NCBI GenBank assembly: GCA_022843945.1
Contig: JALHMR010000025.1
Location: forward strand, 1 to 64,000
DNA: 64,000 nt
Source: Rhodospirillaceae bacterium
GTDB taxonomy: Bacteria; Pseudomonadota; Alphaproteobacteria; CACIAM-22H2
Direction of reading: 5' to 3'
Of the stretch, positions 26,067 to 44,526 are shown in pieces; the stretch's first letter is position 1, and each line of letters starts with the position of its first letter. A model generated the notes under the pieces. That model searched no databases and was not told the DNA's origin. It saw nothing but the letters and a program-made list of their open reading frames with translations. Made by a program: the position numbers and the translations under genes.

Positions 26067-27242
26067 TTACACCCGGATGGTAGTGGCGCTGAACGGCTGC
26101 GAAGGTGCGCCGTCTATCATAAGTCGCAGGTAAATATCGTGATTTGCCAAGTTGAGCAAGTCCGTAGGCTCCAGGCGTCCCTTGAACTCCCTGCCGAGGA
26201 CTACCGCGTCTTCCGGCCCTACCCGGAACGCAATGAGGGTGCCCCGGTTGCCGAGGACGGCATGGCGGATATCGTCCTGGAGCTGATGCAGGTACTGGTG
26301 CGCCAGGACAAGTCCGACGCCATACTTACGTAGTTCTGAGGCCATACTGGCGATGAAGTGGGTGGTGAACGCCTGGAATTCGTCGATGTAGACGAAGAAT
26401 GACCGCCGGGCGGCTTCCGGCATGTCGGCGCGGCTGAAGGCCGCGAGCCCTATCGTGGTAACGAGCAAGCTCCCGAGAAGCGAGGCGCTGTCCTCGCCGA
26501 TGCGCCCCTTGGCGAGGTTGATAATCACTGCCCCGCCCTCGTCCATGACTCGTCGGAAGCTGATCGGCCGCTCGGGGTCTACCAGGACACGATAGAGGAG
26601 CGGATCGGCCAGGAACGCCCCAACCTTGTTCTGTATGGGCGCGATGCTTTCGGTTCGGTACCGCTTCGGGTAGCTCTCGTATTCCTCAAGCCAGAATGCC
26701 TTGACCTGCGGATTGTCTGAACTCGCGGCGCATTGCCGCCGATACCCATCATCGATAAGAAGCCGAAGCACGTCCGGTAGTGCTGCCGCCGGCTGCTCTA
26801 GGAGCAACAGGAGAGCATTGCGGAGCGTGTGCTCCATACGAACGCCCCAAGCATCGGACCAAATGCTCTTGAACGTCTCCAACAGTCCGGATGCCGCAAG
26901 CGAGCGGCGCTCGCGGACAACGCGCCGCAGCGGGTTATATCCAAACGGCTGCACGGGATCGGGAACGTTGAAATACTGCACCTGCTCCCTTTGGTCGGCC
27001 CGCACGCGCCCGTATAAGCGGTCTGCCAGGTCGCCGTGCGGGTCTATCAAACAGAAGCCGCGGCCTGACTGGAGATCCTGCGCGGCCATAGTCTCGATGA
27101 GCGTCGTCTTACCGGCCCCTGTCTCGCCAATGACATGCATGTGGAATAGGCGATCAGATTGTTTGATGCCGAAACGACGATAGTCGTTCCGAAAATTGGT
27201 TCGGGCAAAGTAGGAAATTGGATTGCTGCCGCATCGCTGCAT
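26067..27242 (-). CDS. VirD4/TraG/HerA-like P-loop ATPase (coupling-protein type)
   Basis: A 391-residue ATPase (from the ATG at 27242; an upstream in-frame start at 27407 gives 446 but overlaps the divergent gene). Walker A is GETGAGKT (residues 39-46), followed by LIDPHGDLADRL, and Walker B is FFVYIDEFQAF; GVGLVLAHQYLHQLQDDI and GTLIAFRVGPEDA match the sensor/arginine-finger part of the TraG-type DNA-translocating ATPases. Such proteins couple DNA to a transfer channel or move DNA in other contexts. It is a distant paralogue of the product at 41094-42824. No membrane anchor is seen. It is read outward toward attL and lies alone. Confidence 0.85.
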   Translation of the reverse strand: MQRCGSNPISYFARTNFRNDYRRFGIKQSDRLFHMHVIGETGAGKTTLIETMAAQDLQSGRGFCLIDPHGDLADRLYGRVRADQREQVQYFNVPDPVQPFGYNPLRRVVRERRSLAASGLLETFKSIWSDAWGVRMEHTLRNALLLLLEQPAAALPDVLRLLIDDGYRRQCAASSDNPQVKAFWLEEYESYPKRYRTESIAPIQNKVGAFLADPLLYRVLVDPERPISFRRVMDEGGAVIINLAKGRIGEDSASLLGSLLVTTIGLAAFSRADMPEAARRSFFVYIDEFQAFTTHFIASMASELRKYGVGLVLAHQYLHQLQDDIRHAVLGNRGTLIAFRVGPEDAVVLGREFKGRLEPTDLLNLANHDIYLRLMIDGAPSQPFSATTIRV

Positions 27243-27399
27243 AGCCCAAGGCTTGCGCGTTTGAGCATCGAACGCACGACGTGCAATTATGACGCAGCGG
27301 CAACCGAGATTCTGGCGCACGACTACCCGGCATAAATCCGAAGCGCCGTGTTGATGTAGAATGGTTGACGCCTTCCCATAGCAGCCCGGATTCAAAGTG

Positions 27400-28365
27400 A
27401 TGCACATGGCAGTCTTCCCGTCAGTCCTTCAAGCCGCCCTCGACCAATTCGATGGACGGTCCGAGCAGCAGTTATTAGAGGCCCGGGAAGCGACGAAGAT
27501 TACGGCGCCGCTCTATCACTATACCGATGCAGCAGGTCTACTCGGCATCGTTGGGAACCAACACTTCCGGTTCACCAGCTATTTGCATTTAAATGATCCG
27601 AGCGAACTGAGATACGGAATTGACGTTGCAACTGAGGTACTGGAAGAAATTGGAACCGCGGAGGGAATCGTTAAACTGTTCTGCGGGATGGTCGCTGATC
27701 TTTTTAAGCACCAAAATCTTAGCGATACCTTTGGCTTCTTTGTTGGCAGCTTTAGTCGCGCGCGAGACGACCTTGGCCAATGGCGATCGTACGGCGACAA
27801 TGGACGGGGGTTTGCGATTGGCCTATCCCCTGACCTCTTCCAGATAGAAGACAAGCCCGACCGCAAGCCACACGAGAACGTCTTTGTTGCGCCCGTCGTG
27901 TACGGCAGCGTCGGCACGCGCCAGCGCCATCACGATGCAATTCGGACAGCAGCGAACATCCTGACGACGGCCAGGGATCAACATGCCGACATTTTGCGAG
28001 ATAAAACGGTCGGCATTCCCTTTTTACGAGCGATGGCCGACTCTCTCATGGCATCCCAGCTCGTGTGGAACTGCTTAACCTCAAAACACGAGGCCTATAA
28101 CCGTGAGCAAGAAGTCCGTCTGGTCATCTTGGGTACGCTGGAGACCCTGCAACCCCACATCGACACACGGACACGCAAGGGCGAGGTTGTTCCGTTTATT
28201 CGCAGCGCGATGCCTCTTCAGAAGAAGGGCGGGATTGTCGAAGTAGTAGTTGGCCCTTCGGCGCCTCCCAATGCGGAGGATTCTGTCAGGACGTTTTTGA
28301 GATCATTCGATGTCGATGACCACATTCCAGTCCGACGCTCAACCATTCCATATCGGGCGCTCTGA
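27400..28365 (+). CDS. DUF2971-family protein
   Basis: About 321 residues, soluble. LYHYTDAAGLLGIVGNQHFRFTSYLHLNDPSELRYG, then FGFFVGSFSRARDDLGQWRSYGDNGRGFAIGL, are the hallmark blocks of DUF2971, and EAYNREQEVRLVIL is a later one. The biochemical role of this family is not established; it recurs in mobile elements and near defence genes, and its His/Tyr pattern recalls ADP-ribosyltransferase-like folds, though that is a suggestion. Starts at 27397 (GTG), 27400 and 27406 are all possible. It is divergent from the ATPase gene and ends 82 bp before the inverted-repeat cassette. Confidence 0.85.
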   Translation: MHMAVFPSVLQAALDQFDGRSEQQLLEAREATKITAPLYHYTDAAGLLGIVGNQHFRFTSYLHLNDPSELRYGIDVATEVLEEIGTAEGIVKLFCGMVADLFKHQNLSDTFGFFVGSFSRARDDLGQWRSYGDNGRGFAIGLSPDLFQIEDKPDRKPHENVFVAPVVYGSVGTRQRHHDAIRTAANILTTARDQHADILRDKTVGIPFLRAMADSLMASQLVWNCLTSKHEAYNREQEVRLVILGTLETLQPHIDTRTRKGEVVPFIRSAMPLQKKGGIVEVVVGPSAPPNAEDSVRTFLRSFDVDDHIPVRRSTIPYRAL

Positions 28366-28419
28366 CTCCCAACCTGCGTAGAACAGTGGTACTTACTAAA
28401 CGTGGGTCGAGTATACCTG

Positions 28420-28425
28420 TATAAT
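28420..28425 (+). promoter_or_regulatory. Perfect -10 box outside the invertible cassette
   Basis: TATAAT 35 bp before the recombinase start and 22 bp outside the left inverted repeat. The -35 region is weak (no close TTGACA at 17 bp). The region 28405-28445 is very AT-rich and holds further TATA-like boxes. Confidence 0.55.
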
Positions 28426-28446
28426 TTACTCATATACAATAATAAC

Positions 28447-28471
28447 TGAACAAAATGGGCTATTTTGTTTA
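28447..28471 (+). repeat. Left inverted repeat / recombination core
   Basis: Arms AACAAAA (28449-28455) and TTTTGTT (28463-28469) around the spacer TGGGCTA. The recombinase ATG (28455-28457) spans the arm-spacer border. Exact reverse complement of 30230-30254. Confidence 0.9.
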
Positions 28472-29096
28472 TGAAGGCAAGTCGAATTCTACTTACACGC
28501 GCACGTCCGGAGCGTCCTTCCTTTATGACGTTGAGGGGAATCGAAAATATCTGACGCAGTCGGAACGGACCGCGTTTCTCGCTGCCGCTTCTCGAATGCT
28601 CCCAGAAGTCAGCACCTTCTGCCTAACTCTCGCCTACACCGGTGCTCGCATTTCGGAAGTTCTGGCGCTCACGTCACAGCGGATCGACACGTCCGCGCGC
28701 ATTGTCATTATCGAGAGCTTGAAGAAGCGGCGTCGAGGCGTCTATCGAGCGGTTCCCATTCCGCTTGCGCTAATCAAGGAGTTGGAGCGAGTGCATGGCC
28801 TACGAGCGGCAACGCAGGATTCCGATCGCGCCAACGAACGACTATGGTGCTGGAGCCGGACGACCGCATGGAGTTGGATCAAAACCTGCATGAGGCTAGC
28901 GCGCATTGCCGGGACCCCCGCGAGTCCGAAGGGGCTGCGCCATGCATTCGGGGTCGGCGCTCTGCAGTCTGGCGTACCTATAAACCTTGTCCGCAAGTGG
29001 CTCGGCCACGCTCGTCTCAGTACAACTGAAATCTACACCAACGCCGTTGGCGACGAAGAGCACGCAATCGCGGACAGGTTTTGGAGAACCTTTTGA
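28455..29096 (+). CDS. Minimal tyrosine recombinase (FimB/XerD-like catalytic domain)
   Basis: A 213-residue recombinase made almost only of the catalytic domain, the size of FimB/FimE invertases. Catalytic residues: Arg65 (YTGARISE), Lys90 (SLKKR), Arg162 (GLRHAFG), His185 (GHARL) and the nucleophile Tyr194 (TTEIYTN). The box II histidine is replaced by Lys159 (SPKGLRH). There is no separate core-binding domain beyond about 60 N-terminal residues. Its first codons, MGYFV, are written in the left inverted repeat, so the start moves with the site. No good ribosome site precedes the ATG, which may mean weak or leaderless-like translation. It probably acts on the two repeats of its own cassette. 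Confidence 0.9.
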   Translation: MGYFVYEGKSNSTYTRTSGASFLYDVEGNRKYLTQSERTAFLAAASRMLPEVSTFCLTLAYTGARISEVLALTSQRIDTSARIVIIESLKKRRRGVYRAVPIPLALIKELERVHGLRAATQDSDRANERLWCWSRTTAWSWIKTCMRLARIAGTPASPKGLRHAFGVGALQSGVPINLVRKWLGHARLSTTEIYTNAVGDEEHAIADRFWRTF

Positions 29097-29238
29097 GTTT
29101 CTATGCCGCCGTAACTGGCATCTTCTCTGAAGGTCGCCATCAATATCGGACCGCCGGCAAACTAATTCAAGAAGCTCTCGCTATAGTTGAGAATATAGGA
29201 GTAGCATTTGGCATTTGTGGGCAGCAGTCGGGGGCGAT

Positions 29239-30120
29239 ATGCGCCGAGTCATTATCACAGTCGCTGGATTGCTGGCGGCGGCAGTGGTGCTTACGGGGGT
29301 GCTAGTTGCAATCTGGATAGATGACGTTGCGAGCCGGTTCGTTGACTTCAAAGTATCGATGCTCGCCTCGCTTGCTGAGGATGTTTTGTTTTTCATGATC
29401 GTCGGTCTTGGCCTAGCGATAGTCACCCTCCGCCATCCAAAGCATGACTCGCTGGAGACGAAACTCAGATATTTCTTTCCGGACAGCCGTCCTTCTCTCC
29501 CGTTCTTGGATTTCGCTCGGCAGGAGATATGTCGGTTAGCTGGCCTTTGCGCCGAGGCCGTGCAGTCGATCAAGGTCGAGGAATTCGACTCGTCGTATAA
29601 CGCCTATCGCGTTGTGTTTCACTATCGCTACCGACTTCGAAACATGTTCTCTACGCACGACTACGAGGATGTGTACCAAGCCTTTGTTATGCCAGACAGA
29701 CCGCCGCCCAACGTGCCGGCCCCCAAGGTCTTAGGTCAGATCCTTGAGCTGACGTTCAAACCTTTTGAGGGACATGGCACAGATTATGTGATCCACCCCA
29801 TTGATCTCGTGCACGCTGATTTTGATCGAGACATTCCGCTGCGTTTGCCTCCGCACCAAGAAGGCGAAATCACTTTCAAGTTTTGGCTTTGGTGCCGCCT
29901 TAATGAGGAGCATTTCGTCAGAGCGAAAAGGTTCGTGCAGGACTTTAGCTCTACCATTGAAAACGCATCAGAAGGCGCGGTATTGGTTTCGCTGGATGGG
30001 AAGCTCGAGAACGCGGTTACTGTGCTTCCTAGGCAGACGCTCATATTGGCAAAGCTGCACAATTTGAAACCGCGCTATTTCTTTTCGGTGTGGTTGCACA
30101 AACCCAACGACACGGTATGA
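29239..30120 (+). CDS. Two-span membrane protein of unknown function (cassette cargo)
   Basis: About 293 residues from the ATG at 29239 (GGGGG upstream; another start at 29215 is possible). Two N-terminal membrane segments (about residues 1-27 and 40-63) are followed by a soluble domain of 220 residues with many aromatic and charged strands (IKVEEFDSSYNAYRVVFHYRYRLRNMFS, then EGEITFKFWLWCRLNEEHFVRAKRFV). The soluble part should be cytoplasmic by charge. No family is recognised. It is the only other gene in the inverted-repeat cassette and reads the same way as the recombinase, so any inversion would flip its expression. Confidence 0.75.
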   Translation: MRRVIITVAGLLAAAVVLTGVLVAIWIDDVASRFVDFKVSMLASLAEDVLFFMIVGLGLAIVTLRHPKHDSLETKLRYFFPDSRPSLPFLDFARQEICRLAGLCAEAVQSIKVEEFDSSYNAYRVVFHYRYRLRNMFSTHDYEDVYQAFVMPDRPPPNVPAPKVLGQILELTFKPFEGHGTDYVIHPIDLVHADFDRDIPLRLPPHQEGEITFKFWLWCRLNEEHFVRAKRFVQDFSSTIENASEGAVLVSLDGKLENAVTVLPRQTLILAKLHNLKPRYFFSVWLHKPNDTV

Positions 30121-30229
30121 TTTTCGTATATGAGCGACAGCGGCACTCAGACTCCATAAGCTCGGATAGGGTGCTTCAGTCTACGCAGCTTGCGTCTGCG
30201 AGTGTTTTGCTTTCCCGTTCCAGAGTCAC

Positions 30230-30254
30230 TAAACAAAATAGCCCATTTTGTTCA
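30230..30254 (-). repeat. Right inverted repeat / recombination core
   Basis: Exact reverse complement of 28447-28471. Read from outside on the minus strand it gives ATG-GGC-TAT-TTT-GTT-TAG, a five-codon ORF, in place of the recombinase. It ends 26 bp before the lipoprotein start. Confidence 0.9.
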
Positions 30255-30280
30255 CCTCCAAGCTGTCGAGGGGGTGAACC

Positions 30281-30793
30281 ATGCGCCACGCACTTATTGC
30301 CGTCGTCGCCTTTCCGTTCCTTCTTGCCGCCTGCGAGACCGGACCGTCCGGTTCGCAGTCTGGCAACCAGCCAACCACCACAGCCGCAGCGCCGGTGCAG
30401 ACGGCGCAATCAGGAGGCGGGTGCCTCACACGCCTCTACAACAACGCGAAGATCAATCCGCCCGCCGCCGACACACCGGAAGATCTGCGTCGCTGGTCCG
30501 GCCTCTATGGCGGCGACCGCTGGGACGGCGTGCTGTGCAACTCCCTCGCGGTTCTCCAAGTGAATAAGGACGGCTCGGCGCGGGTGCAGTATGCCTTTGG
30601 CACGGCCCCGTCCTGGGGCATCCAACAGCCAGGCGCCTACGAGTACCCGGCAAAGATCAATGGCGACACGCTCACGTTCGCGGTGCCCGCCCTTGGCGCA
30701 AACGCTACCTACAAGCTCTCGGGCGACAAGCTTTCTGGTACTTGGTCATCCCGCAACGGCACGAACCGGACAACGATCACCAGGGCGCCCTAG
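30281..30793 (+). CDS. Lipoprotein with one beta-rich repeat domain
   Basis: A 170-residue protein. The lipobox LLAAC at residues 14-18 follows a short signal, so the mature protein is lipid-anchored. After a disordered Gly/Ser/Thr/Pro linker comes a domain beginning RRWSGLYGGDRWDGVLCNSLAVLQV and ending KLSGDKLSGTWSSRNGTNRTTI. The same pattern (FxGxWxGxW, a strand, YxxG, then LSG) occurs three times in the lipoprotein at 32139-33341. No function is known. GAGGGGGTG precedes the ATG. The gene starts 26 bp after the right inverted repeat, so its promoter must lie in or beyond the cassette. Confidence 0.8.
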   Translation: MRHALIAVVAFPFLLAACETGPSGSQSGNQPTTTAAAPVQTAQSGGGCLTRLYNNAKINPPAADTPEDLRRWSGLYGGDRWDGVLCNSLAVLQVNKDGSARVQYAFGTAPSWGIQQPGAYEYPAKINGDTLTFAVPALGANATYKLSGDKLSGTWSSRNGTNRTTITRAP

Positions 30794-30819
30794 CGTCACG
30801 AATAATGCGAGGAGATGTC

Positions 30820-31389
30820 ATGCCTATGATGGTGACGCGGCGGGCCTTGCTCCAGACCTTTTCCGGCGGCATCGCGGCCGGCATCGCCGACCCACAGAGC
30901 CTTTGGGCACAGCCTGCGGAAGGCACGAACAAGGGCATGCTGTTCCCTGACATCGTGTATCGAACGACTGACGGAGAAACCCGAAGCATCGCCGATGCGC
31001 GCGGGAAGCTGGTTCTCGTATATCTATGGGCGTCCTGGTGCCCCATCTGCGCGCAGGACTTGAAGCATATTCAGGCGTACTATGATCGCTTCAAAGAGAG
31101 TCCAAGGTTTTCCGCCATCATTCTCAACTTCATGGACCCGTACGATCGCGGGGTGAAGTGGGCAGAGGGGCTGGGCTTCAAGCTCCCGTTTGCGAACAGC
31201 AATATAGCTAGTCGCAATCCTGTCGCGGCAACGACGCGCGGCACCTATACGCTTCCCAGATACACGCCATTATTTTACATTTTGGACGGAAACGGCGTCG
31301 TTCTCGAAGCCACCGCTGCCCAGCAGAACGCCGACCGAAACATTCCTCGCATGATTGAGTCCGTGATTGGCTCGCTCCAGAAGAGCTGA
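30820..31389 (+). CDS. TlpA/ResA-like thiol-disulfide oxidoreductase
   Basis: A 189-residue thioredoxin-fold protein. A twin-arginine-like leader (TRRALLQTFSGGIAAG) suggests Tat or Sec export. The fold shows LVYLWASWCPICAQDLKHIQAYYDRF with the redox pair CPIC, and the cis-Pro segment RYTPLFYILDGNG. It would reduce or oxidise disulfides in the periplasm. GAGGAG five bases before the ATG at 30820 decides this start over the longer frame. It follows the lipoprotein by 26 bp and overlaps the rhodanese gene, so the three form an operon for envelope sulfur/thiol chemistry. The partner protein is unknown. Confidence 0.88.
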   Translation: MPMMVTRRALLQTFSGGIAAGIADPQSLWAQPAEGTNKGMLFPDIVYRTTDGETRSIADARGKLVLVYLWASWCPICAQDLKHIQAYYDRFKESPRFSAIILNFMDPYDRGVKWAEGLGFKLPFANSNIASRNPVAATTRGTYTLPRYTPLFYILDGNGVVLEATAAQQNADRNIPRMIESVIGSLQKS

Positions 31390-32123: not shown

Positions 32124-32138
32124 TCGGGAGAGGTGAAC

Positions 32139-33394: not shown

Positions 33395-34954
33395 TCAGGC
33401 CACTTTTTTCATATCACCACGATCTCCATTCGTCGTCACGGCAGATATTTGTTCCCGCCCGGCAACCACCATCAAAATATCGAACAACTGCCTACTGGCG
33501 GTTCCAAGCGTCCCACAAGATGGTTCACCGACAAGCGATTTTCGCCAGTTTACGATCTCCTGGTACGGAGATTTCAGCGTAATTGCTGGGTTTTTTCCGT
33601 GTACCTCAAAGTTCCAAGTGACAACTTCGGCAATATCTCTGCGCTCACTTGGAATCGCGATTTTGTAGCTTGATTCCTTGATATCTCGGAGTTCCAAGTA
33701 ACGCAGCACGCCCTCGGCCGGAGCCTGGATTGCATCGGGCGTCGACAGCGTCTCAAGGATGCTCTGTCGCTCACGAAGAACGGCATGTCTACGCTCTTCG
33801 AATACATCCTTTGTGATCAGTCCGTCGAGTAAGGCATCCGTGAGCCGAGCAAGCCGCTCATCGAACGTCGCTAGTCGCATTCGTAGCCCATTGCGGTGGT
33901 TTTCAATATCCGCTTCTCGATGCTTTAGGTGCCTCGTTGCAAAGCCCCCAATGTCCCTGATCTCCGTCGTTGATAGCCGGACATAGCCCAAAAGCTCTTC
34001 GAACGCGGCATCAACGTCCTGCTCTCGCATGACAGCGCCTCGGCAGGCAGCGTTGAAGCAACGGTAATAAACGTACCTGCCCTTCTTTCGCTCGCCGACG
34101 AGGTGATACTTGCAGCCGCCACATCGTATGAACCGGCGGAACGTGAAGTCGTGCCTGACTACTTTTCCATACGTCTTGCACTTGAGTATCGTTTGAACAC
34201 GGTCAAACAAGGCCATCGGTACAATGGGCGTGTGGATGCCGGGAAACGTCTCGTTCGTCCGCTTGATGCGGACAAGGCCGACATAGAACGGATTGTGCAG
34301 CATCTTGGAAAGCCCGTTCAGGCTCAGCGTCTCTCCCGACCGCCCTCGTAGTCCGCGCCGCGTCAATTCTGCATGCAGATCCCAAAGGCTCATTCGGTTT
34401 TGGCCGTACAGCTCGAAGGCTTGACGAACGAGGGGTGCCTTGACGGGATCAGGGACTTTCGCCTGCGCCTTGCCCCGATCAAGATAGCCAGGGGGCGCAG
34501 GCAACGGATAGAACCCCTGCTTCAAACGGCCATAAAACCCCTTCCGTACTTCATCGCGCAGGTTGCGAATGAAGTCGGCGGCAACGACCGCCTGGATGTC
34601 CGCTGACAATCGGCCGCCGCGGGACCGAAGATCGAGATTGTCATGGACAAACTTCACGTCAATACCGCGGTCAATGAGATCGCCGAGGTTTGCCCAATCC
34701 CGTAAGTTGCGGGCGCTCCGATCTATCTTATGGATGATGACGCCATCGGCCTCATTTTGGGAAAGCCGGTCGAGCATCCGGCTAAACAATCGCCGGCCTT
34801 GCTTGGCGGCAGTCTCCTTCTCCTCAAACCACGCCCCGATATGCAGGCTATTGCGTACCGCAAAAGCTTCAATTGCGGCGCGTTGCTCCGGCAACGATGA
34901 ACCGTCCCCTTGCTTTACAGATGAGACACGAATGTAGGCAAAATAGCTTTTCAT
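33395..34954 (-). CDS. Large serine recombinase
   Basis: A 519-residue site-specific recombinase. Residues 1-150 are the resolvase catalytic domain (YIRVSSVKQGDGSSLPEQRAAI with the nucleophile Ser, and IIHKIDRSARNLRDW). Then come the recombinase domain (PPGYLDRGKA...NRMSLWDLHAELTRRGLRGRSG), a zinc ribbon (FIRCGGCKYHLVGERKKGRYVYYRCFNAACRG) and a coiled-coil region. It would insert or excise DNA at att sites. Its presence besides the tyrosine integrase means either a nested element or a second recombination function. No flanking att repeat was found by eye. It overlaps the preceding small gene by 4 bp. Confidence 0.92.
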   Translation of the reverse strand: MKSYFAYIRVSSVKQGDGSSLPEQRAAIEAFAVRNSLHIGAWFEEKETAAKQGRRLFSRMLDRLSQNEADGVIIHKIDRSARNLRDWANLGDLIDRGIDVKFVHDNLDLRSRGGRLSADIQAVVAADFIRNLRDEVRKGFYGRLKQGFYPLPAPPGYLDRGKAQAKVPDPVKAPLVRQAFELYGQNRMSLWDLHAELTRRGLRGRSGETLSLNGLSKMLHNPFYVGLVRIKRTNETFPGIHTPIVPMALFDRVQTILKCKTYGKVVRHDFTFRRFIRCGGCKYHLVGERKKGRYVYYRCFNAACRGAVMREQDVDAAFEELLGYVRLSTTEIRDIGGFATRHLKHREADIENHRNGLRMRLATFDERLARLTDALLDGLITKDVFEERRHAVLRERQSILETLSTPDAIQAPAEGVLRYLELRDIKESSYKIAIPSERRDIAEVVTWNFEVHGKNPAITLKSPYQEIVNWRKSLVGEPSCGTLGTASRQLFDILMVVAGREQISAVTTNGDRGDMKKVA

Positions 34955-36766: not shown

Positions 36767-37114
36767 ATGACCCGCCCTCTTCCCACATACCTTCGCGCCA
36801 TCCGCAAACGTCACGCGCTCACGCAGGCGGAGCTTGGGCTTCTCCTTGGATATTCAAAGTCGGCCATTTCAAAGTTTGAAACACGCAGCAGGCCGCCGAC
36901 CGTTGATCTAATTCTTGGCTGCGAAGTGATTTTCGGAGGAGGTGCACGCGAGCTCTTTCCAGCGATGTATCGAGAAATAGAGGACGCCATCATGCGCCGC
37001 GCGAAGGAGCTGTACGAGCGGCTCGAGAAGCGGAACGACCTTGCTTCGCTCGATAAGATGCAACTCCTCCTGGACATGATCCATCGCGTCGAAAGCGACA
37101 CCTTTCAAGTATGA
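36767..37114 (+). CDS. XRE-family helix-turn-helix regulator
   Basis: 115 residues. The Cro/C1-type domain occupies residues 5-65 (LRAIRKRHALTQAELGLLLGYSKSAISKFETRSRPPTVDLIL), followed by a helical C-terminal part with many Glu, Lys and Arg. It probably controls the island block that follows. Its last four bases overlap the RuvC-like gene (ATGA). A perfect DnaA 9-mer (TTATCCACA, 36645-36653) lies in the spacer upstream. Confidence 0.9.
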   Translation: MTRPLPTYLRAIRKRHALTQAELGLLLGYSKSAISKFETRSRPPTVDLILGCEVIFGGGARELFPAMYREIEDAIMRRAKELYERLEKRNDLASLDKMQLLLDMIHRVESDTFQV

Positions 37115-37620
37115 CGGAGAAGCGATCAAGGGATCTCGTGTGCGCAATTCACCCCACGCCGCGAGGCTTTGGCTGGTCAGTGTTTGAAGCGCCTCTTTCC
37201 CCCGTCGACTGGGGCATAGCGAGCGCTAAGCCGGGTCGCAATTCTCGATCTATGGCGCGTTTCGAGCGCCTGCTTAACAGATACGAACCATGCATCGTTA
37301 TCTTCGAGGAATTCGAGCAGCATCCAGCACGCCGAGGCGAGCGAATCAAAAAACTCTGCCGCGCAATGATGCACTTGGCGAATACGCGCGGCGCTCACAC
37401 TCCCATCTACAGCCGCGAAGCTATCCGAACGTGCTTTTCGAGTATCGGGGCGACGACCCGATACGAGATTGCGCAAGCGATAGCGCAGCACGTTCCCGTA
37501 TTCCGGAGACACTTACCCAAAGAGCGGAAACCATGGATGTCTGAGGATTTCCGGCAGTGCCTGTTCGACTCTGCTGCGCTGGCCCTGACGCACTTTGCGG
37601 TTACCGGCATGAGCACCTAG
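37111..37620 (+). CDS. RuvC/RNase H-fold-like protein with altered first catalytic site
   Basis: 169 residues. The layout matches RuvC-like resolvases: a first strand LVCAIHPTPRGFGWSVFE in place of the usual GIDPGL...GWxVxE, then a second acidic strand CIVIFEEFEQHPAR, and a C-terminal helix FRQCLFDSAALALTHF that resembles the hDAadAlAHA end of RuvC. The first catalytic Asp position is His14. Either the site is remodelled or the protein binds junctions without cutting. It is translationally coupled to the XRE gene, an arrangement of regulator plus junction-processing protein. The fold assignment is by pattern and should be treated as probable. Confidence 0.65.
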   Translation: MTEKRSRDLVCAIHPTPRGFGWSVFEAPLSPVDWGIASAKPGRNSRSMARFERLLNRYEPCIVIFEEFEQHPARRGERIKKLCRAMMHLANTRGAHTPIYSREAIRTCFSSIGATTRYEIAQAIAQHVPVFRRHLPKERKPWMSEDFRQCLFDSAALALTHFAVTGMST

Positions 37621-37691
37621 TCCTCGCTCCCGTGCATCCGGGAGCGCCGGAATATCTTTTCCGACGCTCCCACTCTGCAAGGGAGACCACG

Positions 37692-38033
37692 ATGGAAGTT
37701 ATAAACGGGAGAAAAGTGGCGCGTATCCGCTATCTCAATGACCTTTTGCGCTGCCAGGGTATCGGCGGCCAGGTGATGGTGACCGCGGGCATTGATGCAC
37801 TCGGGCCGGAAACCGTGTTGCGGATACTGAAAGCGGTCGCCGATTTTACTGACTTCGACCCGCACAACGATCCGCACGGTGAGCGGGACTGCGCGATGCT
37901 GACCGTCGACGGGTTGTCCATTTTGTTCAAGCTCGACTACTTCGACACGACGCTCACGATGCATTCGTCCGACCCTGCCGATCCAGCAGCAACGTGTCGC
38001 GTTTTGACCGTAATGCGCGCTAACGAATACTGA
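37692..38033 (+). CDS. DUF3768-family small protein
   Basis: A 113-residue protein with the DUF3768 blocks IRYLNDLLRCQGIGGQVMVTAGI, VADFTDFDPHNDPHGERDCAML and LFKLDYFD. Such proteins are frequent on alphaproteobacterial plasmids and islands, with no known role. AAGGGAGACC precedes the ATG at 37692; the longer frame overlaps the previous gene. It follows the RuvC-like gene after 71 bp. Confidence 0.85.
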   Translation: MEVINGRKVARIRYLNDLLRCQGIGGQVMVTAGIDALGPETVLRILKAVADFTDFDPHNDPHGERDCAMLTVDGLSILFKLDYFDTTLTMHSSDPADPAATCRVLTVMRANEY

Positions 38034-38966: not shown

Positions 38967-39060
38967 TACACCTAGGTCGGAGTCTGCCACCAGGGTCTTG
39001 CACACCCCGGCGGACGACGGTCAAAGCGAGTGGCTACCAACCTACACAAGGGAGACCCTC

Positions 39061-40041
39061 ATGCTTCGCCAAGACGCAGTCTCAGACTCCTTTACACCAG
39101 CCACCGGAGAGGTGGCCGAACTCGGTCGAACCGCATTCCTCAAACAGGAACGGTCCGATTCCGCTGGTCAGAATACACCCCGCGGCGGCGTTGTCAACTT
39201 CTCCGAAGGGGAAAAAACTCAATGCCGTGAACCGGCTAAGGACTTGGCGCGACTCGGCTACGCGGTCGTTCCCCGGGGGTCGCTCGGCATCCACACGTTG
39301 CACTGGCCGGCGCTAAACGCGTTCCTCGCCAGCGTGCCGAGCAGCCTCGCCTATGACCCGTACGATGCCAACCAGGCGAGGGCGCGTCGGTACGGTGCGT
39401 TCCTCTTCGATCCGAGCAGCGGCCTTCTGCAGCCGTTCGGTCGCCGCTACGACCCGACCGGTGCCCCGCTCGGAGAGTATTACCAGGACGCGATCTATAA
39501 TCCGGACCCCACGGCAGCGGGGGTGCGGCGGGTGTTTGCCGGGCTTCGCGACGACCAGATCAACAGCCGCGGCCTGCACGAACTGATCCGGGCTGATTTC
39601 GCCATTGCCGAAGCTGCCGGTGTCCTTCCGGGCTCGGCCGCGTATCTGGCGGGCGTGCACCTCATCGCCGTCATGCCACGGCCGAACCACCCGGCGGTGT
39701 CGTCGCCCGACGAACTGCACTGCGACGGCGAGCCCGTCACGGCGGTCCACCTGGTCGAAAGGCGCAACGTCACGGGTGGCGAAAACACCGTTTCGGCGGT
39801 CGCAAACACGGGCAAGCACCCCAAGAGCCTGCCGGCAGGGGAAATCATTGAGCAGTTCACGCTCACGACGCCGCTCGACGGCTTCATCGTCGATGATCGG
39901 CGGGTCTCCCACCACGTCGCCGAAGTGCAGGTCATGGACCCCGACTTCCCGGCCGGGCGCACCGTCGTCCTGATCGACTTCCGTCCGATGAAACCGCTGT
40001 CAAACGACGATCTCCCTAAGGCAAGCGCGCCGACATCCTGA
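39061..40041 (+). CDS. 2-oxoglutarate/Fe(II) dioxygenase family protein (2OG-Fe_Oxy_2-like)
   Basis: A 326-residue enzyme with the metal motif ELHCDGEP (His220-x-Asp222) and distal His284/285 (RRVSHHVAEV), followed by a conserved Arg segment (GRTVVLIDFRP) for 2-oxoglutarate. The pattern fits the 2OG-Fe_Oxy_2 group that includes bacterial isoleucine hydroxylases. It would hydroxylate an amino acid or related molecule, product unknown. GGGAGA precedes the ATG at 39061; the longer frame is not needed. A good promoter lies upstream and a terminator directly after, so it is a self-contained single-gene cargo unit. Confidence 0.85.
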   Translation: MLRQDAVSDSFTPATGEVAELGRTAFLKQERSDSAGQNTPRGGVVNFSEGEKTQCREPAKDLARLGYAVVPRGSLGIHTLHWPALNAFLASVPSSLAYDPYDANQARARRYGAFLFDPSSGLLQPFGRRYDPTGAPLGEYYQDAIYNPDPTAAGVRRVFAGLRDDQINSRGLHELIRADFAIAEAAGVLPGSAAYLAGVHLIAVMPRPNHPAVSSPDELHCDGEPVTAVHLVERRNVTGGENTVSAVANTGKHPKSLPAGEIIEQFTLTTPLDGFIVDDRRVSHHVAEVQVMDPDFPAGRTVVLIDFRPMKPLSNDDLPKASAPTS

Positions 40042-40064
40042 CAGCGCATCCGATTTAGAACGGA

Positions 40065-40089
40065 TGCCCCGCCCAAGGCGGGGCATTTT
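40065..40089 (+). terminator. Intrinsic terminator of the 2OG-Fe gene
   Basis: TGCCCCGCC-caa-GGCGGGGCA followed by TTTT, 24 bp past the stop. A second, overlapping hairpin (GCATCCG 40046-40052 with CGGATGC 40061-40067) competes with its left arm. Confidence 0.88.
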
Positions 40090-40113
40090 CTTATGTGTGT
40101 GTCACGCAGATTA

Positions 40114-41088
40114 CTACCGCATAAGGCGAATGCTGCTGCCCGCCGCGTCGATGATATCCGTCTGCGCCACCTCCTTCTCCGACTTCACGCCAAACAGCAG
40201 AATCCCCGACGGCACCTTCCGCTCTTTCACCACCAGTTCATGCGCCGCCTCCCGTATCGCCTTCGCCCGCGCAACGCTCGTCGTCAACATCAACATCCGA
40301 GGAGCGAGAAGATCGAGATGTGTGCGATGGCATTCCTGCTGCCAACTCTCCGCGTAGGCGACGAGCTTCCGCAGAACGCTTGAACGATGCAGGAACGCGT
40401 CGCTTTCGCGCACCCGCTCTGCAGGTGCGATCGTCATGGTACCGCGATCGATTTCGAGGAAGATGTAGCTCACGCGAAACGTGCCATCAGGACTCCTTAG
40501 ACGCAGCCCAAAGATAGCGTCCGGCGCGAGATACACCGTGCCGCGCGCCCCGTAGTAGTGAACTGAAACGGACCAGCGGCTAGGTAATGGTGAGCGCCGC
40601 GTTTCCTCGGGTGCACGTTTTAGAATATCCTCGAATGGGATCAGGGTAAGGTCATCACGCGAGCGGCACGCTAGCTCCACGTCAATCATGAACCGCGAGA
40701 CGGCGAGCGTGTGATCCAGGTTCTCCCGCGTATACGAGCGATTACGCGACCGCCAGTTGGCCACGCCGATATTCGCACCGAACATTTCCTTCATATAGCG
40801 GGCGCCGGTCGTGTCGAGGCCGTACACGAGCGCCTGCGAACCGCCCCTGCCGAACCGATCTATCTGCGCTATCGGCCGGTCTAGGAAGCCAGCACGATAC
40901 AAGAGCGTGAGCCGTCGCGAGAGGCGGTCGGGCGAACGGTCAGGGAACAGGCGATAGAGGTCGTCGGCGCGGACGAATCGATGGCGATAGATACACTGGA
41001 TGATGGCAACATCATCGGAAGTAAGCTCAATAGGAGGAGCTTCGCCTTCGCGTTTGAACCTCGGATACGACCGACGTGCCCCCGCCAT
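40114..41088 (-). CDS. Replication-relaxation family protein
   Basis: 324 residues of the Replic_Relax type: an N-terminal winged helix (LTSDDVAIIQCIYRHRFVRADDLYRLFPDRSPDRLSRRLTLLYRAGFLDRP), a middle alpha/beta part (HTLAVSRFMIDVELACR, PDAIFGLRL, FLEIDRGTM) and a C-terminal helical stretch. Members accompany TraG-type ATPases in mobile elements and are thought to act in DNA processing or relaxation for transfer or replication; the exact activity is not established. It is the last gene of a four-gene operon, five bases after the ATPase gene. Confidence 0.85.
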   Translation of the reverse strand: MAGARRSYPRFKREGEAPPIELTSDDVAIIQCIYRHRFVRADDLYRLFPDRSPDRLSRRLTLLYRAGFLDRPIAQIDRFGRGGSQALVYGLDTTGARYMKEMFGANIGVANWRSRNRSYTRENLDHTLAVSRFMIDVELACRSRDDLTLIPFEDILKRAPEETRRSPLPSRWSVSVHYYGARGTVYLAPDAIFGLRLRSPDGTFRVSYIFLEIDRGTMTIAPAERVRESDAFLHRSSVLRKLVAYAESWQQECHRTHLDLLAPRMLMLTTSVARAKAIREAAHELVVKERKVPSGILLFGVKSEKEVAQTDIIDAAGSSIRLMR

Positions 41089-41093
41089 TCTCG

Positions 41094-42824
41094 TTAACGG
41101 GGTTCCTGTTCCTCGCGCCAGAACGTGGCTTCGCCGCGTGCGTTCCCGTTATCGGAGGAGAGCGCCACCTGCCGCGCAATTATTTCCGCCTCGGCCATCG
41201 CAATGCCCGAGATAAATGCGCTTCTCTCGGATGTCGAGGCTCGAAACCGCTCTATGATTCCCGCCGCCCTAAGCACCGGCTTCACCTCCGCAGTCTCGAT
41301 CCGAATTGTTCGCTGCCCCCTGCGCTTCACGATGGCCGCACGATCCGGCAGATTGCGCAGTTTCAGTTGCGCCAGGTGCAAACTTTCGTCGAGAGAATAG
41401 AAATGCGTTGGTCGTTCTTCTCGCACCGCGCGCAATGTCTGTGACCGCCCTCGCGTCTCGCTATGACTGCGCGAGTGCCCCTCCGTTATCGAAAAAGATT
41501 CCGTCACGATACTGCTTGCAGTGCTTACCGAACTCTCGCTCATACCCCGCTGTTCCGGTGTCTCGCCCTCTCGGGCGTCGTAGCCGATGCTTGTGCCCGT
41601 CGAGACCGTAGTGCCTTCGCTGGTACTCACACTGCGCGTAGCAGAGCTGCTTGTGGCATAGGCGCTAGAGGCACTTTCGGATTCGAGCCAGAACGGCTCC
41701 TCATCAACGATTGCGGGCGCCGTGATGCCTTGCTTGGGTCGTTCAAGATCAATATCCCCGCGCATAATCTCACGGGCCATGATCGCAGCGTCGTCGTCGG
41801 AAAGACCTCCGAGCACGATCTTGGTCTGAGTTCCACCCATCACGGCGTTGTAGATCCCCTCGCCCCGCTCCTTTAGCTGACCGATTCGTTGGTGCGCGAG
41901 CACGGCGTGCAGACCAAACTTCCGTGTCTGATCCAAAACACGCTCGATGTCCCCTGAAAGGAAGTCGTACGCTTCGTCGACATACAGTGTGAATGGCTTG
42001 CGACGTGCTACAGCCTGGTCGCGGCCCAGCGCCGTGAGGAATAGATCATTGATGAGTAACGTGCCGAGAACCCGCGCATTCTCATACGAGAAGGAATGAT
42101 GCGAGCCGAGATTCACAAGCACAATTTCGCTCCGGTCCATTGCCGAACGGAAATCTATAACTCGCTCCTTTTGCCCAACGACAAGCCGCATTGATGGTGC
42201 GGACAGAAACTTAGACAGCCGCGTGATGGTGCTCTCGACATGCTCAGCAAATTCCCGCCTCGGCAGGGCACTGAGCTCGTCCCATGTGATTTGAAACATG
42301 GGGTTGGGTAGCCCTTCGGTCAGCATCCGGCGCACACCTTCCGGATCGCGCGCTTGGAGCAAGGCTGGTCCCTCGGCAAGCGTCAGGCCGCGGACCGCAA
42401 GCGCATAGAAGACTGCGCGAAGGATCTTCTCGAGGCGCGGGGTCTCGTTCATATCGCGGGCGCCCCACGCCTGCGCGCACGCCCCCACCATGGCATCCAC
42501 CCGCACGGACAGAGATTCACCCGGAACCGTGCGGAGCGGATTGAAGCCGGGAACTAGCGTTTCGTCCCCGGGACGGATCAGGTGGATTCGACGTATCTTT
42601 GCGAAACCCCGGACCGCACACCACTCTTCGATGTCGTCACAGAGCGTTCCATGCGGATCAAGCAGGCACAGCCCACGGCCGCGAGCGATGTCCTGCCGAA
42701 TCATGTGCTCTAAAAGCTTTGACTTGCCAGTCCCGATAGAGCCAAGCACATGGACGTGTCGTGAGCGCTCTCTATCGGTGAGCGCAAGTTTCCGGCCGCG
42801 GCGAGTGGTGCCGATCTCAAGCAT
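41094..42824 (-). CDS. TraG/VirD4-type coupling ATPase with Ser-rich insert
   Basis: A 576-residue P-loop ATPase. Walker A is GSIGTGKS (residues 28-35), followed by LLDPHGTLCDDI; Walker B is FTLYVDEAYDF; GLHAVLAHQRIGQLKERG follows. A low-complexity Ser/Thr-rich stretch lies at about residues 390-480, then a helical C-terminal part. It belongs to the same large ATPase family as the product at 26067-27242 but has a longer tail. Its start overlaps the stop of the coiled-coil gene (TAATG), so translation is coupled. It probably moves or couples the island's DNA together with the replication-relaxation and coiled-coil partners. Confidence 0.87.
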   Translation of the reverse strand: MLEIGTTRRGRKLALTDRERSRHVHVLGSIGTGKSKLLEHMIRQDIARGRGLCLLDPHGTLCDDIEEWCAVRGFAKIRRIHLIRPGDETLVPGFNPLRTVPGESLSVRVDAMVGACAQAWGARDMNETPRLEKILRAVFYALAVRGLTLAEGPALLQARDPEGVRRMLTEGLPNPMFQITWDELSALPRREFAEHVESTITRLSKFLSAPSMRLVVGQKERVIDFRSAMDRSEIVLVNLGSHHSFSYENARVLGTLLINDLFLTALGRDQAVARRKPFTLYVDEAYDFLSGDIERVLDQTRKFGLHAVLAHQRIGQLKERGEGIYNAVMGGTQTKIVLGGLSDDDAAIMAREIMRGDIDLERPKQGITAPAIVDEEPFWLESESASSAYATSSSATRSVSTSEGTTVSTGTSIGYDAREGETPEQRGMSESSVSTASSIVTESFSITEGHSRSHSETRGRSQTLRAVREERPTHFYSLDESLHLAQLKLRNLPDRAAIVKRRGQRTIRIETAEVKPVLRAAGIIERFRASTSERSAFISGIAMAEAEIIARQVALSSDNGNARGEATFWREEQEPR

Positions 42825-43486
42825 TAGAGCGCCGCATCTCCCGCCTTCTTGGAAATGAACGATTGCAGCATGGCGTCGAACAGCTCGCACACCTGCTGCT
42901 GTGCCTCGGTGAGCTTGTCTGCACCACCAGCGTCCTTAATGATCTGCTCCTTTGCCGCCTCGACCGCCTTCACAATGTCCGGCATTTTGCCGAGATCGCT
43001 CATGAATGATTCGAATTCGTCAGACTTCACGCCATCGTTGCCGTTTCTACCTCCCGCTTTCTTGAGCTTTCCGCGCGCCTCAGCTTCTGCGAGCTGTTCC
43101 TTTGCCTCAAGCAGTTCGAGCTTCCGGCGAACCCGCGCGATCTCCGCAAACGCGTCAAATTCTTCTTCCGCGACCTTGAGACGCTTGCTTGCAAGCATGA
43201 TGCGTCTGCGCTCGTCTTCCCGGATGGTCGGCAGCTCCCCAAGCTGCACTTCCATCTGCTCGCGGCGGATGATCGCCGCACCGACGGCCACGCCCGCGTC
43301 GATGCCAGCGGCCTTGGCGCGGAGCGCTTGTTCGTACCCTTCGAGTACCCGCCGGATAGCGTTGAATCTCATTCGTCCGAGGATGCCGAGCCCGAGCGGG
43401 GTTCCATTCGGCATCGTGAGCCGAGTAGCATCCGACCGCGGCGGCACTATTTCGCCATGAAGCACACCCTCGTCTTTGTCAGTCAT
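42824..43486 (-). CDS. Coiled-coil protein of the transfer-like operon
   Basis: 220 residues, mostly alpha-helical: RRIMLASKRLKVAEEEFDAFAEIARVRRKLELLEAKEQLAEAEARGKL is a long charged coiled coil, and the C-terminal part (LTEAQQQVCELFDAMLQSFI) is amphipathic. No catalytic motif. It overlaps the membrane-protein gene by four bases and the ATPase gene by one, so it is made together with both and may link the membrane protein to the ATPase. That role is inference. Confidence 0.75.
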   Translation of the reverse strand: MTDKDEGVLHGEIVPPRSDATRLTMPNGTPLGLGILGRMRFNAIRRVLEGYEQALRAKAAGIDAGVAVGAAIIRREQMEVQLGELPTIREDERRRIMLASKRLKVAEEEFDAFAEIARVRRKLELLEAKEQLAEAEARGKLKKAGGRNGNDGVKSDEFESFMSDLGKMPDIVKAVEAAKEQIIKDAGGADKLTEAQQQVCELFDAMLQSFISKKAGDAAL

Positions 43487-44526
43487 GCCGCTTTCTCCCG
43501 AACCGACCGGCTTGCTTCATGGGCTGCTTTCGCGCGCTCAAGCGCCACGGCAGCGAGGCCAATGGCCTCTTGGATGCTAATGAACGCCGCCCGCTCATAG
43601 TCCGTCCTCGCGCGGGCCAAGTCCTCTCGAATCAGCCGCTCGCTTACGCGCTTCATCCTTGCGACAAGCCGCTCACCCTGCACTATCCGCACTTCGCGCA
43701 AGATGCGGTTGTTTGGCGGCACCTCGCGAAGGGCCGCCGCAAGCGCATTGCCGTCCAGCATATGATCCAAATTGAGCGCCGAACGCACTATCGGCTCGAC
43801 GGGGTGCGGATGAAAGGTGAAGTAATACCAGCGAAGGATCGGCTCGCGTATTTTTACGAAGACAATTACGGCAACAAGTAAGACAGCGAGATAGCCCATC
43901 ATCTGCAGGAAATCCTGCACCGACGCCCAAAACTCCTCGCTTTCTTTCTGCTGTTGCCGAAGCCAGGCTTGTCGCTGCGCCTCCCGCTCACGCTCTACCG
44001 CTGCGGCAGCTTCACGCGCTCGTTGTTCGGCACCGACGTTCTCCACCGCCTGCCAAGCGTAAGACGAACCCGGATGAAATGCGCTGTCGCCTCTAAAGGA
44101 GTGCGCCCGGATCGCAAGCATGCCGTTTGGCAGGTACAGCTCGACGGAGCCAACGTCCAGGCGAAGCTCCGATGTTTCTCTAACACCGAAGATGAAACGC
44201 AGCGGACATGCCTGCCACGCGAACTCCACGGCGCGGCGCAGTACCGATTCAACCACCAACGCGTTGTCGTACTCGGATTTTTCGCTTACGACGCGGACGC
44301 CCCGCGCAATATTGCCGATGCCTATGTGCCGGCAATCGGTCACCGAAAAGGTGAGGCGACCAAGAGCGCGCGCCACCTGTTCATCGGTCGCGAATCCATA
44401 ACCGAACGCTGCCCGATACTGAATCCCGCCGACGTTCATGCTCGTCTGCGCACGACTTTCAGTCGCACCGAACATGAAGGCCGCTATGACAGCTGCTGAG
44501 ATCGCAAGTGCGCGGGAGAAAGTCAT
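43483..44526 (-). CDS. Exported/membrane protein of the transfer-like operon
   Basis: 347 residues from the ATG at 44526. A signal peptide (MTFSRALAISAAVIAAFMFGATESRA) leads to a periplasmic part of about 190 residues with a coiled-coil segment (EQRAREAAAAVEREREAQRQAWLRQQQKE). One membrane segment (YLAVLLVAVIVFVKI) then leads to a C-terminal helical domain facing the cytoplasm. It is first in the operon with the coiled-coil protein, the TraG-like ATPase and the replication-relaxation protein. It could be the membrane anchor of that complex. No family is recognised. Confidence 0.75.
   Translation of the reverse strand: MTFSRALAISAAVIAAFMFGATESRAQTSMNVGGIQYRAAFGYGFATDEQVARALGRLTFSVTDCRHIGIGNIARGVRVVSEKSEYDNALVVESVLRRAVEFAWQACPLRFIFGVRETSELRLDVGSVELYLPNGMLAIRAHSFRGDSAFHPGSSYAWQAVENVGAEQRAREAAAAVEREREAQRQAWLRQQQKESEEFWASVQDFLQMMGYLAVLLVAVIVFVKIREPILRWYYFTFHPHPVEPIVRSALNLDHMLDGNALAAALREVPPNNRILREVRIVQGERLVARMKRVSERLIREDLARARTDYERAAFISIQEAIGLAAVALERAKAAHEASRSVREKAA

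What the first reader, a model, noticed from the sequence alone, without database searches (positions are those of the whole stretch)
26067..44526. Two coupling-protein-like ATPases and a replication-relaxation operon without a type IV secretion channel
The operon 44526-40114 (membrane protein, coiled coil, TraG-like ATPase, Replic_Relax protein, all overlapping) looks like a DNA-handling machine, and a second ATPase lies at the left end. No VirB4, VirB6, VirB10 or known relaxase was recognised. This may be a mobilization set that borrows a channel, or a DNA-processing or defence system of a different kind. The Ser-rich insert of the large ATPase is also odd.
Basis: partly seen in the sequence, partly recalled or inferred. 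Interest (0 to 1): 0.7.

Follow-up and report, generated by a model that had tools for sequence, protein, structure and literature searches.

The report
Hitchhiking mobile island with own relaxase
A 21.8-kb mobile DNA island in an alphaproteobacterium carries what looks like a complete kit for nicking its own DNA and delivering it to a secretion channel, but no channel genes, so it probably hitchhikes through another element's channel; it belongs to a family widespread in alphaproteobacteria for which I found no published description.

Summary
The overlapping operon 44526/44583-40114 (-) encodes a membrane protein, a coiled-coil protein, a T4CP-like ATPase and a Replic_Relax protein; a second T4CP-like ATPase closes the left end (26067-27242). 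No T4SS channel gene was found in the island. The "no known relaxase" part is wrong: Replic_Relax (PF13814) is the published MOBC relaxase family. Here it has a predicted winged-helix domain plus a PD-(D/E)XK-type nuclease domain with invariant H, PD, E, S and Y, as expected of MOBC. A same-genus empty site puts the island at 25911-47729 (21,797 bp), inserted at the 3' end of rpsI.

Eighty loci (Alphaproteobacteria, Patescibacteria) hold relatives of the small ATPase. In alphas it recurs with a large serine recombinase, an HTH/160-aa gene pair, DUF3768 and the ATPase-Replic_Relax pair, in the window's gene order. The same genome carries two complete-looking Trb-type conjugation systems elsewhere, so candidate helper channels exist.

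Best reading: a MOBC integrative mobilizable element with its own coupling protein (CloDF13 logic), variant in having two ATPases and split-off membrane/coil partners. A strongly folding non-coding block beside the operon (45160-45600) is a candidate transfer origin. New variant of a known kind; transfer untested.

The parts
25911..25932 (.). attL: 22-bp copy of the rpsI 3' end (2 mismatches to attR)
   Evidence: Direct repeat with 47708-47729; in same-genus locus L111 window 25399-25932 is joined directly to 47708 onward, sharing these 22 bp
47708..47729 (.). attR at the 3' end of rpsI
26067..27242 (-). Small T4CP-like ATPase, 391 aa (ORF 26067-27407; start inferred at 27242)
   Evidence: Pfam TrwB_AAD_bind 7.8e-9; 83% identical to own-genome copy on C18; 80 relatives returned; 27.8% over 371 aa, 8e-32, to a Bacillus plasmid coupling protein
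33395..34954 (-). Large serine recombinase, 519 aa, conserved neighbour of the small ATPase
   Evidence: Pfam Resolvase 5.4e-25, Recombinase, Zn_ribbon_recom; homologues in 54 of 80 loci, within 1 kb and on the same strand as the small ATPase in 42
36767..37114 (+). HTH regulator, 115 aa, conserved element backbone
   Evidence: HTH families; relatives in 35 ORFs of the loci
37111..37620 (+). Conserved ~160-aa protein, no Pfam hit, overlaps the HTH gene by 4 nt
   Evidence: cluster present in 40 loci; no Pfam match
37557..38033 (+). DUF3768-family protein, conserved element backbone
   Evidence: cluster in 29 loci; cluster member matches PF12599 at 1e-35
40114..41088 (-). Replic_Relax protein, predicted MOBC-type relaxase, 324 aa
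   Evidence: PF13814 3.9e-19; invariant H126, P189, D190, E212, S237, Y245 in 25 homologues; model pLDDT 82.8, nuclease domain 92.5; structural neighbours
41094..42890 (-). T4CP-like ATPase, 598 aa, with Ser-rich insert
   Evidence: Pfam; homologues at 37-41% identity in three other alphaproteobacterial genomes, with Ser-rich inserts
42824..43486 (-). Coiled-coil partner, 220 aa
   Evidence: Counterpart by position and composition in L107 (224 aa) and L109 (306 aa, phmmer E 0.0014); overlaps both neighbours
43483..44583 (-). Membrane partner: N-terminal hydrophobic segment (signal-peptide-like) plus one TM segment near residue 225
   Evidence: Kyte-Doolittle segments at 18 and 225; membrane proteins occupy the same place in L107 (194 aa) and L109 (TM+coil fused)
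44682..45155 (+). Divergent 157-aa coiled-coil gene between the operon and the structured block
   Evidence: ORF, no Pfam hit; a divergent 161-aa gene sits in the same position in L109
45160..45600 (.). Non-coding block with nested hairpins: candidate cis site (oriT / single-strand origin), inferred
   Evidence: ssDNA fold -154 kcal/mol, z -11.8; unique in genome; last 115 nt 79% identical to DNA beside a truncated Replic_Relax gene in G004; same-position block in L109, z -17.7
46243..47553 (-). Tyrosine integrase next to attR; presumed integrase for the rpsI site
   Evidence: Pfam Phage_integrase 1.5e-10; relatives in L036, L054, L064
27397..28365 (+). Cargo: DUF2971 protein (candidate-defence profile PDC-S31)
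   Evidence: PF11185 1.3e-8; PADLOC 6e-7
28447..30254 (.). Segment bounded by perfect 25-bp inverted sites, holding a small tyrosine recombinase (28455-29096) and one ORF (29215-30120)

Best explanation
A 21.8-kb integrative mobilizable element inserted at the 3' end of rpsI. Shown: integration with an empty site in a relative; an operon of membrane protein, coiled coil, coupling-type ATPase and MOBC-family protein; a second coupling-type ATPase beside a conserved serine-recombinase backbone; no channel genes in the island; two complete-looking Trb-type systems elsewhere in the genome. Inferred: after excision the Replic_Relax protein binds a cis site (perhaps the structured block 45160-45600) through its winged helix and nicks one strand with its PD-(D/E)XK domain. 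The 598-aa ATPase, which has no TM segment of its own, is tied to the inner membrane by the separately encoded coil and membrane proteins, and hands the nicked strand to the channel of a co-resident conjugative element. The role of the second, 391-aa ATPase is open; it may be a second coupling/pumping ring or assist recombination or excision.
For: PF13814 match 3.9e-19. PF13814 equated with MOBC, and MOBC with PD-(D/E)XK nucleases bearing an N-terminal winged helix in TraX (PMC5357655, PMC12857230). Predicted model: winged helix with MarR-type Z about 10, and a C-terminal domain whose structural neighbours are mostly PD-(D/E)XK nucleases (EndoMS, BstEII, FokI, MunI, Can2, Z 4-6.4). CloDF13-type MobC and Gram-positive Replic_Relax proteins share the H...PD...ExE/D...K/R...Y pattern. 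In 18 of 24 relatives the Replic_Relax gene directly follows an ATPase of the same family. The same pair sits inside full conjugation operons on Bacillus and Embleya plasmids. The ATPase-Replic_Relax elements carry integrases, and no VirB4 was found within 10 kb. Empty site at rpsI. Two Trb systems with MOBP relaxases in the same genome. VirB4 in 11 of 20 host genomes against 82 of 385 in the class. Published precedent: the few mobilizable plasmids with their own VirD4 are MOBC, and two Streptococcus IMEs pair VirD4 with MobC (PMC5704250).
Against: No oriT, nicking or transfer has been shown. Direct profile similarity to CloDF13-type MobC is weak (hmmsearch E 0.038; hhalign probability 1.3). 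The ATPases are closer to a Gram-positive plasmid coupling protein than to VirD4 or MobB of Gram-negatives, so docking on a Trb channel is assumed. Nine of 20 host genomes of relatives have no PF03135 VirB4. PD-(D/E)XK Z-scores are all under 8, where chance similarity is common, and come from a Foldseek-preselected set.
Confidence: 0.7

Rival explanations
1. Channel-independent DNA donation: the membrane protein, coil and ATPase(s) form their own inner-membrane DNA pump, with Replic_Relax as the DNA-cutting partner, as in the ICEth1/TdtA 'transjugation' element of Thermus, which has a HerA-type hexamer, a NurA-like nuclease and a restriction enzyme and no T4SS.
For: Same general design: a 14.9-kb integrated element, HerA/FtsK-type ATPase plus nucleases, no described relaxase or T4SS (PMC5365140). 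Membrane and coil partners are encoded in the operon and recur in L107 and L109. Nine of 20 relatives' hosts lack VirB4. CedD and CedB profiles hit the small ATPase weakly.
Against: Replic_Relax is a conjugative relaxase family, and the same pair sits in full T4SS operons in Gram-positives. No outer-membrane component is encoded. A diderm donor would need an exit path.
Confidence: 0.12
2. Degenerate remnant of an ICE or conjugative plasmid that has lost its channel genes.
For: Mosaic island with cargo; G004 carries a truncated Replic_Relax; rpsI-like remnants near the right end suggest repeated integration.
Against: All four operon genes are intact and tightly packed; the channel-less architecture recurs in many genera with the same backbone, so it is the stable state.
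Confidence: 0.1
3. Anti-phage or anti-plasmid defence module of the HerA-ATPase plus nuclease type (compare HerA-Sir2, MADS mad8).
For: Both ATPases hit PADLOC mad8 (4e-17, 7.5e-16). The islands carry defence-like cargo: DUF2971 here, type I restriction-modification genes on C18.
Against: No other MADS gene convincingly matched among the ten island proteins scanned; the ATPase-Replic_Relax pair travels with integrases and relaxase-type features; Replic_Relax had no PADLOC hit.
Confidence: 0.06

Closest known systems
CloDF13 mobilization module (MobB coupling protein + MobC relaxase, MOBC)
   Same: A coupling-type ATPase gene immediately upstream of a MOBC/PF13814 relaxase gene; no channel genes; CloDF13 uses the R388 channel (PMC7431656). 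Shared H, PD, ExE/D, Y pattern in the relaxase.
   Different: Integrated island, not a plasmid; ATPase not recognisably MobB-like and without its own TM domain; separate coil and membrane genes; second ATPase; weak direct sequence similarity.
MOBC + VirD4 integrative mobilizable elements of Streptococcus (e.g. IME_SsalCCHSS3_ND)
   Same: IME with its own VirD4-type coupling protein and Replic_Relax relaxase (PMC5357655, PMC5704250).
   Different: Firmicutes; no second ATPase or serine-recombinase/HTH/DUF3768 backbone described there.
Gram-positive plasmids with the ATPase-Replic_Relax pair (Bacillus licheniformis 27.7-kb plasmid, Embleya plasmid)
   Same: DUF87/T4CP-like ATPase directly followed by a replication-relaxation gene; Bacillus ATPase matches the window's small ATPase at 8e-32.
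   Different: They carry VirB4-like, membrane and hydrolase genes of a channel; the window does not. Their ATPase is one 800-885 aa protein with an extra N-terminal region.
Thermus ICEth1 / TdtA transjugation element
   Same: Small integrated island with HerA/FtsK-class ATPase, nuclease partner and restriction cargo, no T4SS (PMC5365140).
   Different: NurA-like nuclease rather than Replic_Relax; no coil/membrane operon described; no direct sequence comparison made here.
MADS mad8 ATPase
   Same: PADLOC mad8 profile matches both ATPases.
   Different: No other MADS component convincingly matched among the proteins scanned.

Membership tests
MOBC relaxase (PF13814) | Profile match to Replic_Relax above the curated cut-off | tested here: met
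   69.9 bits against a cut-off of 25.3
MOBC relaxase (PF13814) | PD-(D/E)XK-type nuclease core with conserved acidic residues | tested here: met
   PD189-190 and E212 invariant in 25 homologues, D214 frequent; model neighbours mostly PD-(D/E)XK nucleases, Z 4-6.4, individually weak
MOBC relaxase (PF13814) | N-terminal winged helix as in TraX | tested here: met
   residues 21-105 match MarR-type winged helices, Z about 10, rmsd 2-3 A over about 77 residues
MOBC relaxase (PF13814) | Direct sequence similarity to the prototype CloDF13 MobC | tested here: inconclusive
   hmmsearch E 0.038, hhalign probability 1.3, both against a Klebsiella CloDF13-type MobC; motif pattern alignable
MOBC relaxase (PF13814) | Strand- and site-specific nicking at oriT | not testable with these tools
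   needs biochemistry
Integrative mobilizable element | Delimited integrated element with integrase and att repeats | tested here: met
   empty site in L111 and 22-bp repeat; tyrosine integrase 46243-47553
Integrative mobilizable element | Own relaxase but no mating channel | tested here: met
   Replic_Relax present; no T4SS channel hit in the island
Integrative mobilizable element | Transfer in trans by a helper | not testable with these tools
   candidate helpers in the same genome: Trb systems on C21 and C12
Type IV coupling protein (VirD4/TrwB class) | Nucleotide-binding domain related to TrwB/TraG | tested here: met
   TrwB_AAD_bind above cut-off for both ATPases
Type IV coupling protein (VirD4/TrwB class) | N-terminal transmembrane domain in the same polypeptide | tested here: not met
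   no N-terminal TM-like segment in either ATPase; membrane segments lie in the separate 366-aa protein
Autonomous ICE | Encodes VirB4 and other channel components | tested here: not met
MADS defence system | Eight-gene mad1-mad8 set | tested here: not met
   significant hits to mad8 only (a weak mad3 P-loop match, E 0.013) among ten island proteins scanned

The most novel reading that the evidence does not exclude
A widespread alphaproteobacterial mobile-element family moves DNA with a self-contained inner-membrane pump (membrane anchor + coil + ATPase ring + MOBC nuclease, with a second ATPase ring tied to the serine recombinase) that needs no type IV secretion channel, starting from a large folded single-strand DNA origin beside the operon.
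Probability: 0.1. Interest if true: 0.88.

Novelty: new variant of a known kind. Interest (0 to 1): 0.52.

Why it matters
Relaxase-based classification of alphaproteobacterial islands rarely reports MOBC elements; a survey of 41 Mesorhizobium genomes described mainly MOBF and a few MOBQ mobilizable elements (PMC8627217). This family shows a recurrent backbone (small ATPase, serine recombinase, HTH/160-aa pair, DUF3768, ATPase-Replic_Relax), explains how such islands may spread, and gives concrete tests: which of the two coupling-type ATPases is needed, whether a TM-less coupling protein works through separate membrane and coil partners, and whether the folded block is the transfer origin. PLSDB/MOB-suite typed as non-mobilizable the Bacillus and Embleya plasmids carrying the ATPase-Replic_Relax pair and a Sulfitobacter plasmid carrying the small ATPase, so such elements may be under-counted.

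Tried and rejected
Searching genome contigs with the distant Replic_Relax alignment failed for lack of conserved stretches, so the small ATPase was used instead. The phage collection gave nothing for the 598-aa ATPase; plasmids gave one remnant-like Replic_Relax hit in Bradyrhizobium. CloDF13's own record could not supply intact MobB/MobC reading frames, so a Klebsiella relative was used. Profile comparison of the 14-sequence alignment with MobC was not significant. The full-length model's fold search was filled by winged-helix proteins, so the nuclease domain was modelled alone; Foldseek on it gave no E below 0.001. No solved structure was found by sequence. No Rfam family in the island. Covariation support for the folded HTH-upstream regions of relatives is weak (3 of 32 pairs with double changes), so the RNA-versus-DNA question is open. 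Considered and rejected: full ICE (no channel genes) and MADS (only mad8-like). I suspected from the residue pattern that the 160-aa protein is RuvC-like, but no profile supports it, so I do not claim it.
Full report
WHAT IS THERE. The window lies on contig C25 of a 5.4-Mb alphaproteobacterial genome. GC content drops from about 66% to 53-61% between about 26 and 48 kb. The four-gene operon and the second ATPase of the finding are present at the stated places. The left ATPase ORF 26067-27407 most likely starts at 27242, giving 391 aa, because an 83% identical protein of exactly that length exists elsewhere in the genome.

BOUNDARIES. A 22-bp repeat of the rpsI 3' end lies at 25911-25932 and 47708-47729. 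In the nearest same-genus genome (locus L111), DNA matching window 25399-25932 is joined directly to DNA matching 47708 onward, and the two matches share exactly those 22 bp. That is an empty site, so the island is a 21,797-bp insertion at the end of rpsI. A tyrosine integrase (46243-47553) sits at the rpsI side. A second rpsI-like fragment (47591-47612) and repeated 17-mers near both ends (25978, 47571, 47624) suggest an earlier integration or integrase-binding sites.

THE RELAXASE. Replic_Relax is not an unknown protein: Coluzzi et al. 2017 (PMC5357655) list PF13814 as the MobC/MOBC relaxase, and the 2025 T4SS review (PMC12857230) describes MOBC as related to PD-(D/E)XK restriction enzymes, with a winged helix in TraX of pAD1. 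The window's protein meets this. Pfam score is 69.9 bits against a cut-off of 25.3. H126, P189, D190, E212, S237 and Y245 are invariant in 25 homologues. The predicted structure (pLDDT 82.8; nuclease domain alone 92.5) has an N-terminal winged helix (Z about 10 to MarR-type proteins) and a C-terminal domain whose best structural neighbours are mostly PD-(D/E)XK nucleases: EndoMS, BstEII, FokI, MunI, Can2, Cap4, EcoO109I (Z 4-6.4). Each of those Z values is modest; the consistency of the class is the argument. Direct profile comparison with the CloDF13-type MobC is not significant, though the motif pattern aligns.

THE ATPASES. Both carry the TrwB-type domain. They are distinct from each other (32% identity) and are closer to the coupling protein of a Gram-positive plasmid (8e-32 for the small one) than to the host's own VirD4 or to MobB. 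Neither has an N-terminal TM-like segment. In the nearest relatives the anchoring role seems to be taken by neighbours. Nitratireductor sp. XY-223 (L107) has a 194-aa membrane protein, a 224-aa coil, a 561-aa ATPase and a 335-aa Replic_Relax gene in one overlapping run. The Mesorhizobium genome behind L109 has a 306-aa TM-plus-coil fusion before a 584-aa ATPase.

A FAMILY OF ELEMENTS. A scan of bacterial and archaeal genomes with the small ATPase returned 80 loci, in Alphaproteobacteria and Patescibacteria. Clustering their neighbours shows a recurrent backbone in alphas: small ATPase, large serine recombinase (54 loci; within 1 kb and same strand in 42), HTH gene, 160-aa gene, DUF3768, and a larger ATPase followed by Replic_Relax (18 of 24 Replic_Relax genes directly adjacent). 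Read in reverse, the window has the order ATPase-Replic_Relax ... DUF3768, 160-aa, HTH ... serine recombinase ... small ATPase, end; this matches the order in Hyphomicrobiales bacterium OFTM377 (L108), with different cargo between. The own genome carries a second, different element on C18 with the same small ATPase (83%), another ATPase-Replic_Relax pair and type I restriction-modification genes. In an even sample of the class, 10 of 385 genomes (the window's own included) have the small ATPase at E below 1e-40.

CHANNEL. No channel genes were found in the window island. Within 10 kb of the relatives no VirB4 appeared; one locus (L089) has TrbB/TrbG/TrbI-like genes. The window's genome has two VirB4 genes on other contigs, each inside a complete-looking Trb operon with VirD4 and a DUF3363/MOBP relaxase, so possible helpers exist in the same cell. 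Eleven of 20 genomes of Replic_Relax-bearing relatives have VirB4 against 82 of 385 in the class sample; this is suggestive only, because genome size and sampling differ, and nine hosts have none. In Bacillus and Embleya plasmids the same ATPase-Replic_Relax pair is embedded in operons with VirB4-like, membrane and hydrolase genes, which ties the pair to conjugation.

HOW IT MOST LIKELY WORKS. Shown here: integration at rpsI, empty site, intact operon, family context, absence of channel genes, presence of possible helpers. Inferred from known MOBC systems: the protein binds a cis site and nicks one strand without a detected covalent link (PMC12857230), and the coupling ATPase, as MobB does for CloDF13 with R388 (PMC7431656), brings the strand to the channel of a resident conjugative element. 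The 391-aa ATPase has no assigned role; its tight link to the serine recombinase suggests it belongs to the older backbone of the element.

A FOLDED BLOCK. The non-coding block 45160-45600 is the most strongly folding stretch of the island (ssDNA -154 kcal/mol, z -11.8). It is unique in the genome, and its last 115 nt are 79% identical to DNA beside a truncated Replic_Relax gene in another family of the class. In L109 a block with z -17.7 lies in the same position, separated from the operon by a divergent 161-aa gene as here by a divergent 157-aa gene. In 15 of 35 other loci the most structured window lies upstream of the HTH gene, against 1.06 expected (binomial about 3e-14). These regions are partly conserved at DNA level, but covariation is weak. 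I propose an origin of transfer or single-strand origin; this is inference.

VERDICT. A MOBC integrative mobilizable element of a recurrent alphaproteobacterial family, a new variant of a known kind. Literature searches in the open library found no description of this family, which does not prove that none exists.

Noticed in passing
window 28447-28471 and 30230-30254: Perfect 25-bp inverted sites, each itself a near-palindrome (10-bp arms, 5-bp spacer GGGCT, lox/Xer-like), frame a small tyrosine recombinase and one ORF; the left site overlaps the recombinase start codon. The C18 element (L003 17797 / 19769) has the same layout with different cargo. Possibly an invertible or cassette-like segment.
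   Followed up: partly
window 45160-45600; L109 8350-9050: Very strongly folding non-coding blocks in the same place beside the relaxase operon (z -11.8 and -17.7).
   Followed up: partly
L020-L099, upstream of the ~117-aa HTH gene: The region between the divergent HTH/160-aa genes and the serine recombinase or small ATPase is the most structured 300-nt window of the locus in 15 of 35 loci (1.06 expected), with a conserved GGAGGGGTGAAACCCCTCC hairpin (one base differs in L056) inside a longer stem in at least four loci (L029, L036, L056, L065).
   Followed up: partly
G000:C18 27500-47400 (L003): A second element in the same genome with integrase, a 1361-aa HTH protein, a 696-aa ATPase, Replic_Relax, the 83% identical small ATPase and type I restriction-modification genes.
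   Followed up: partly
L025-L027, L031-L032, L040, L044, L047, L052-L053, L058, L062, L073: Patescibacteria encode relatives of the small alphaproteobacterial ATPase at 43-47% identity, in several loci directly preceded by a ~430-aa gene (cluster 12) resembling part of the Bacillus plasmid coupling protein.
   Followed up: no
window 30281-30793 and 32133-33341: Two related lipoprotein-like genes (phmmer 1.6e-6) in the cargo; a similar gene follows the right inverted site in the C18 element.
   Followed up: no
window 38998-40041: 2OG-Fe dioxygenase gene (PF10014, 6.6e-28) carried as cargo; a weak relative lies in the L107 element.
   Followed up: no
L104 2905-4128 (G000:C12): TIR-domain protein gene between the relaxase and VirD4 genes of a Trb-type conjugative element.
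   Followed up: no
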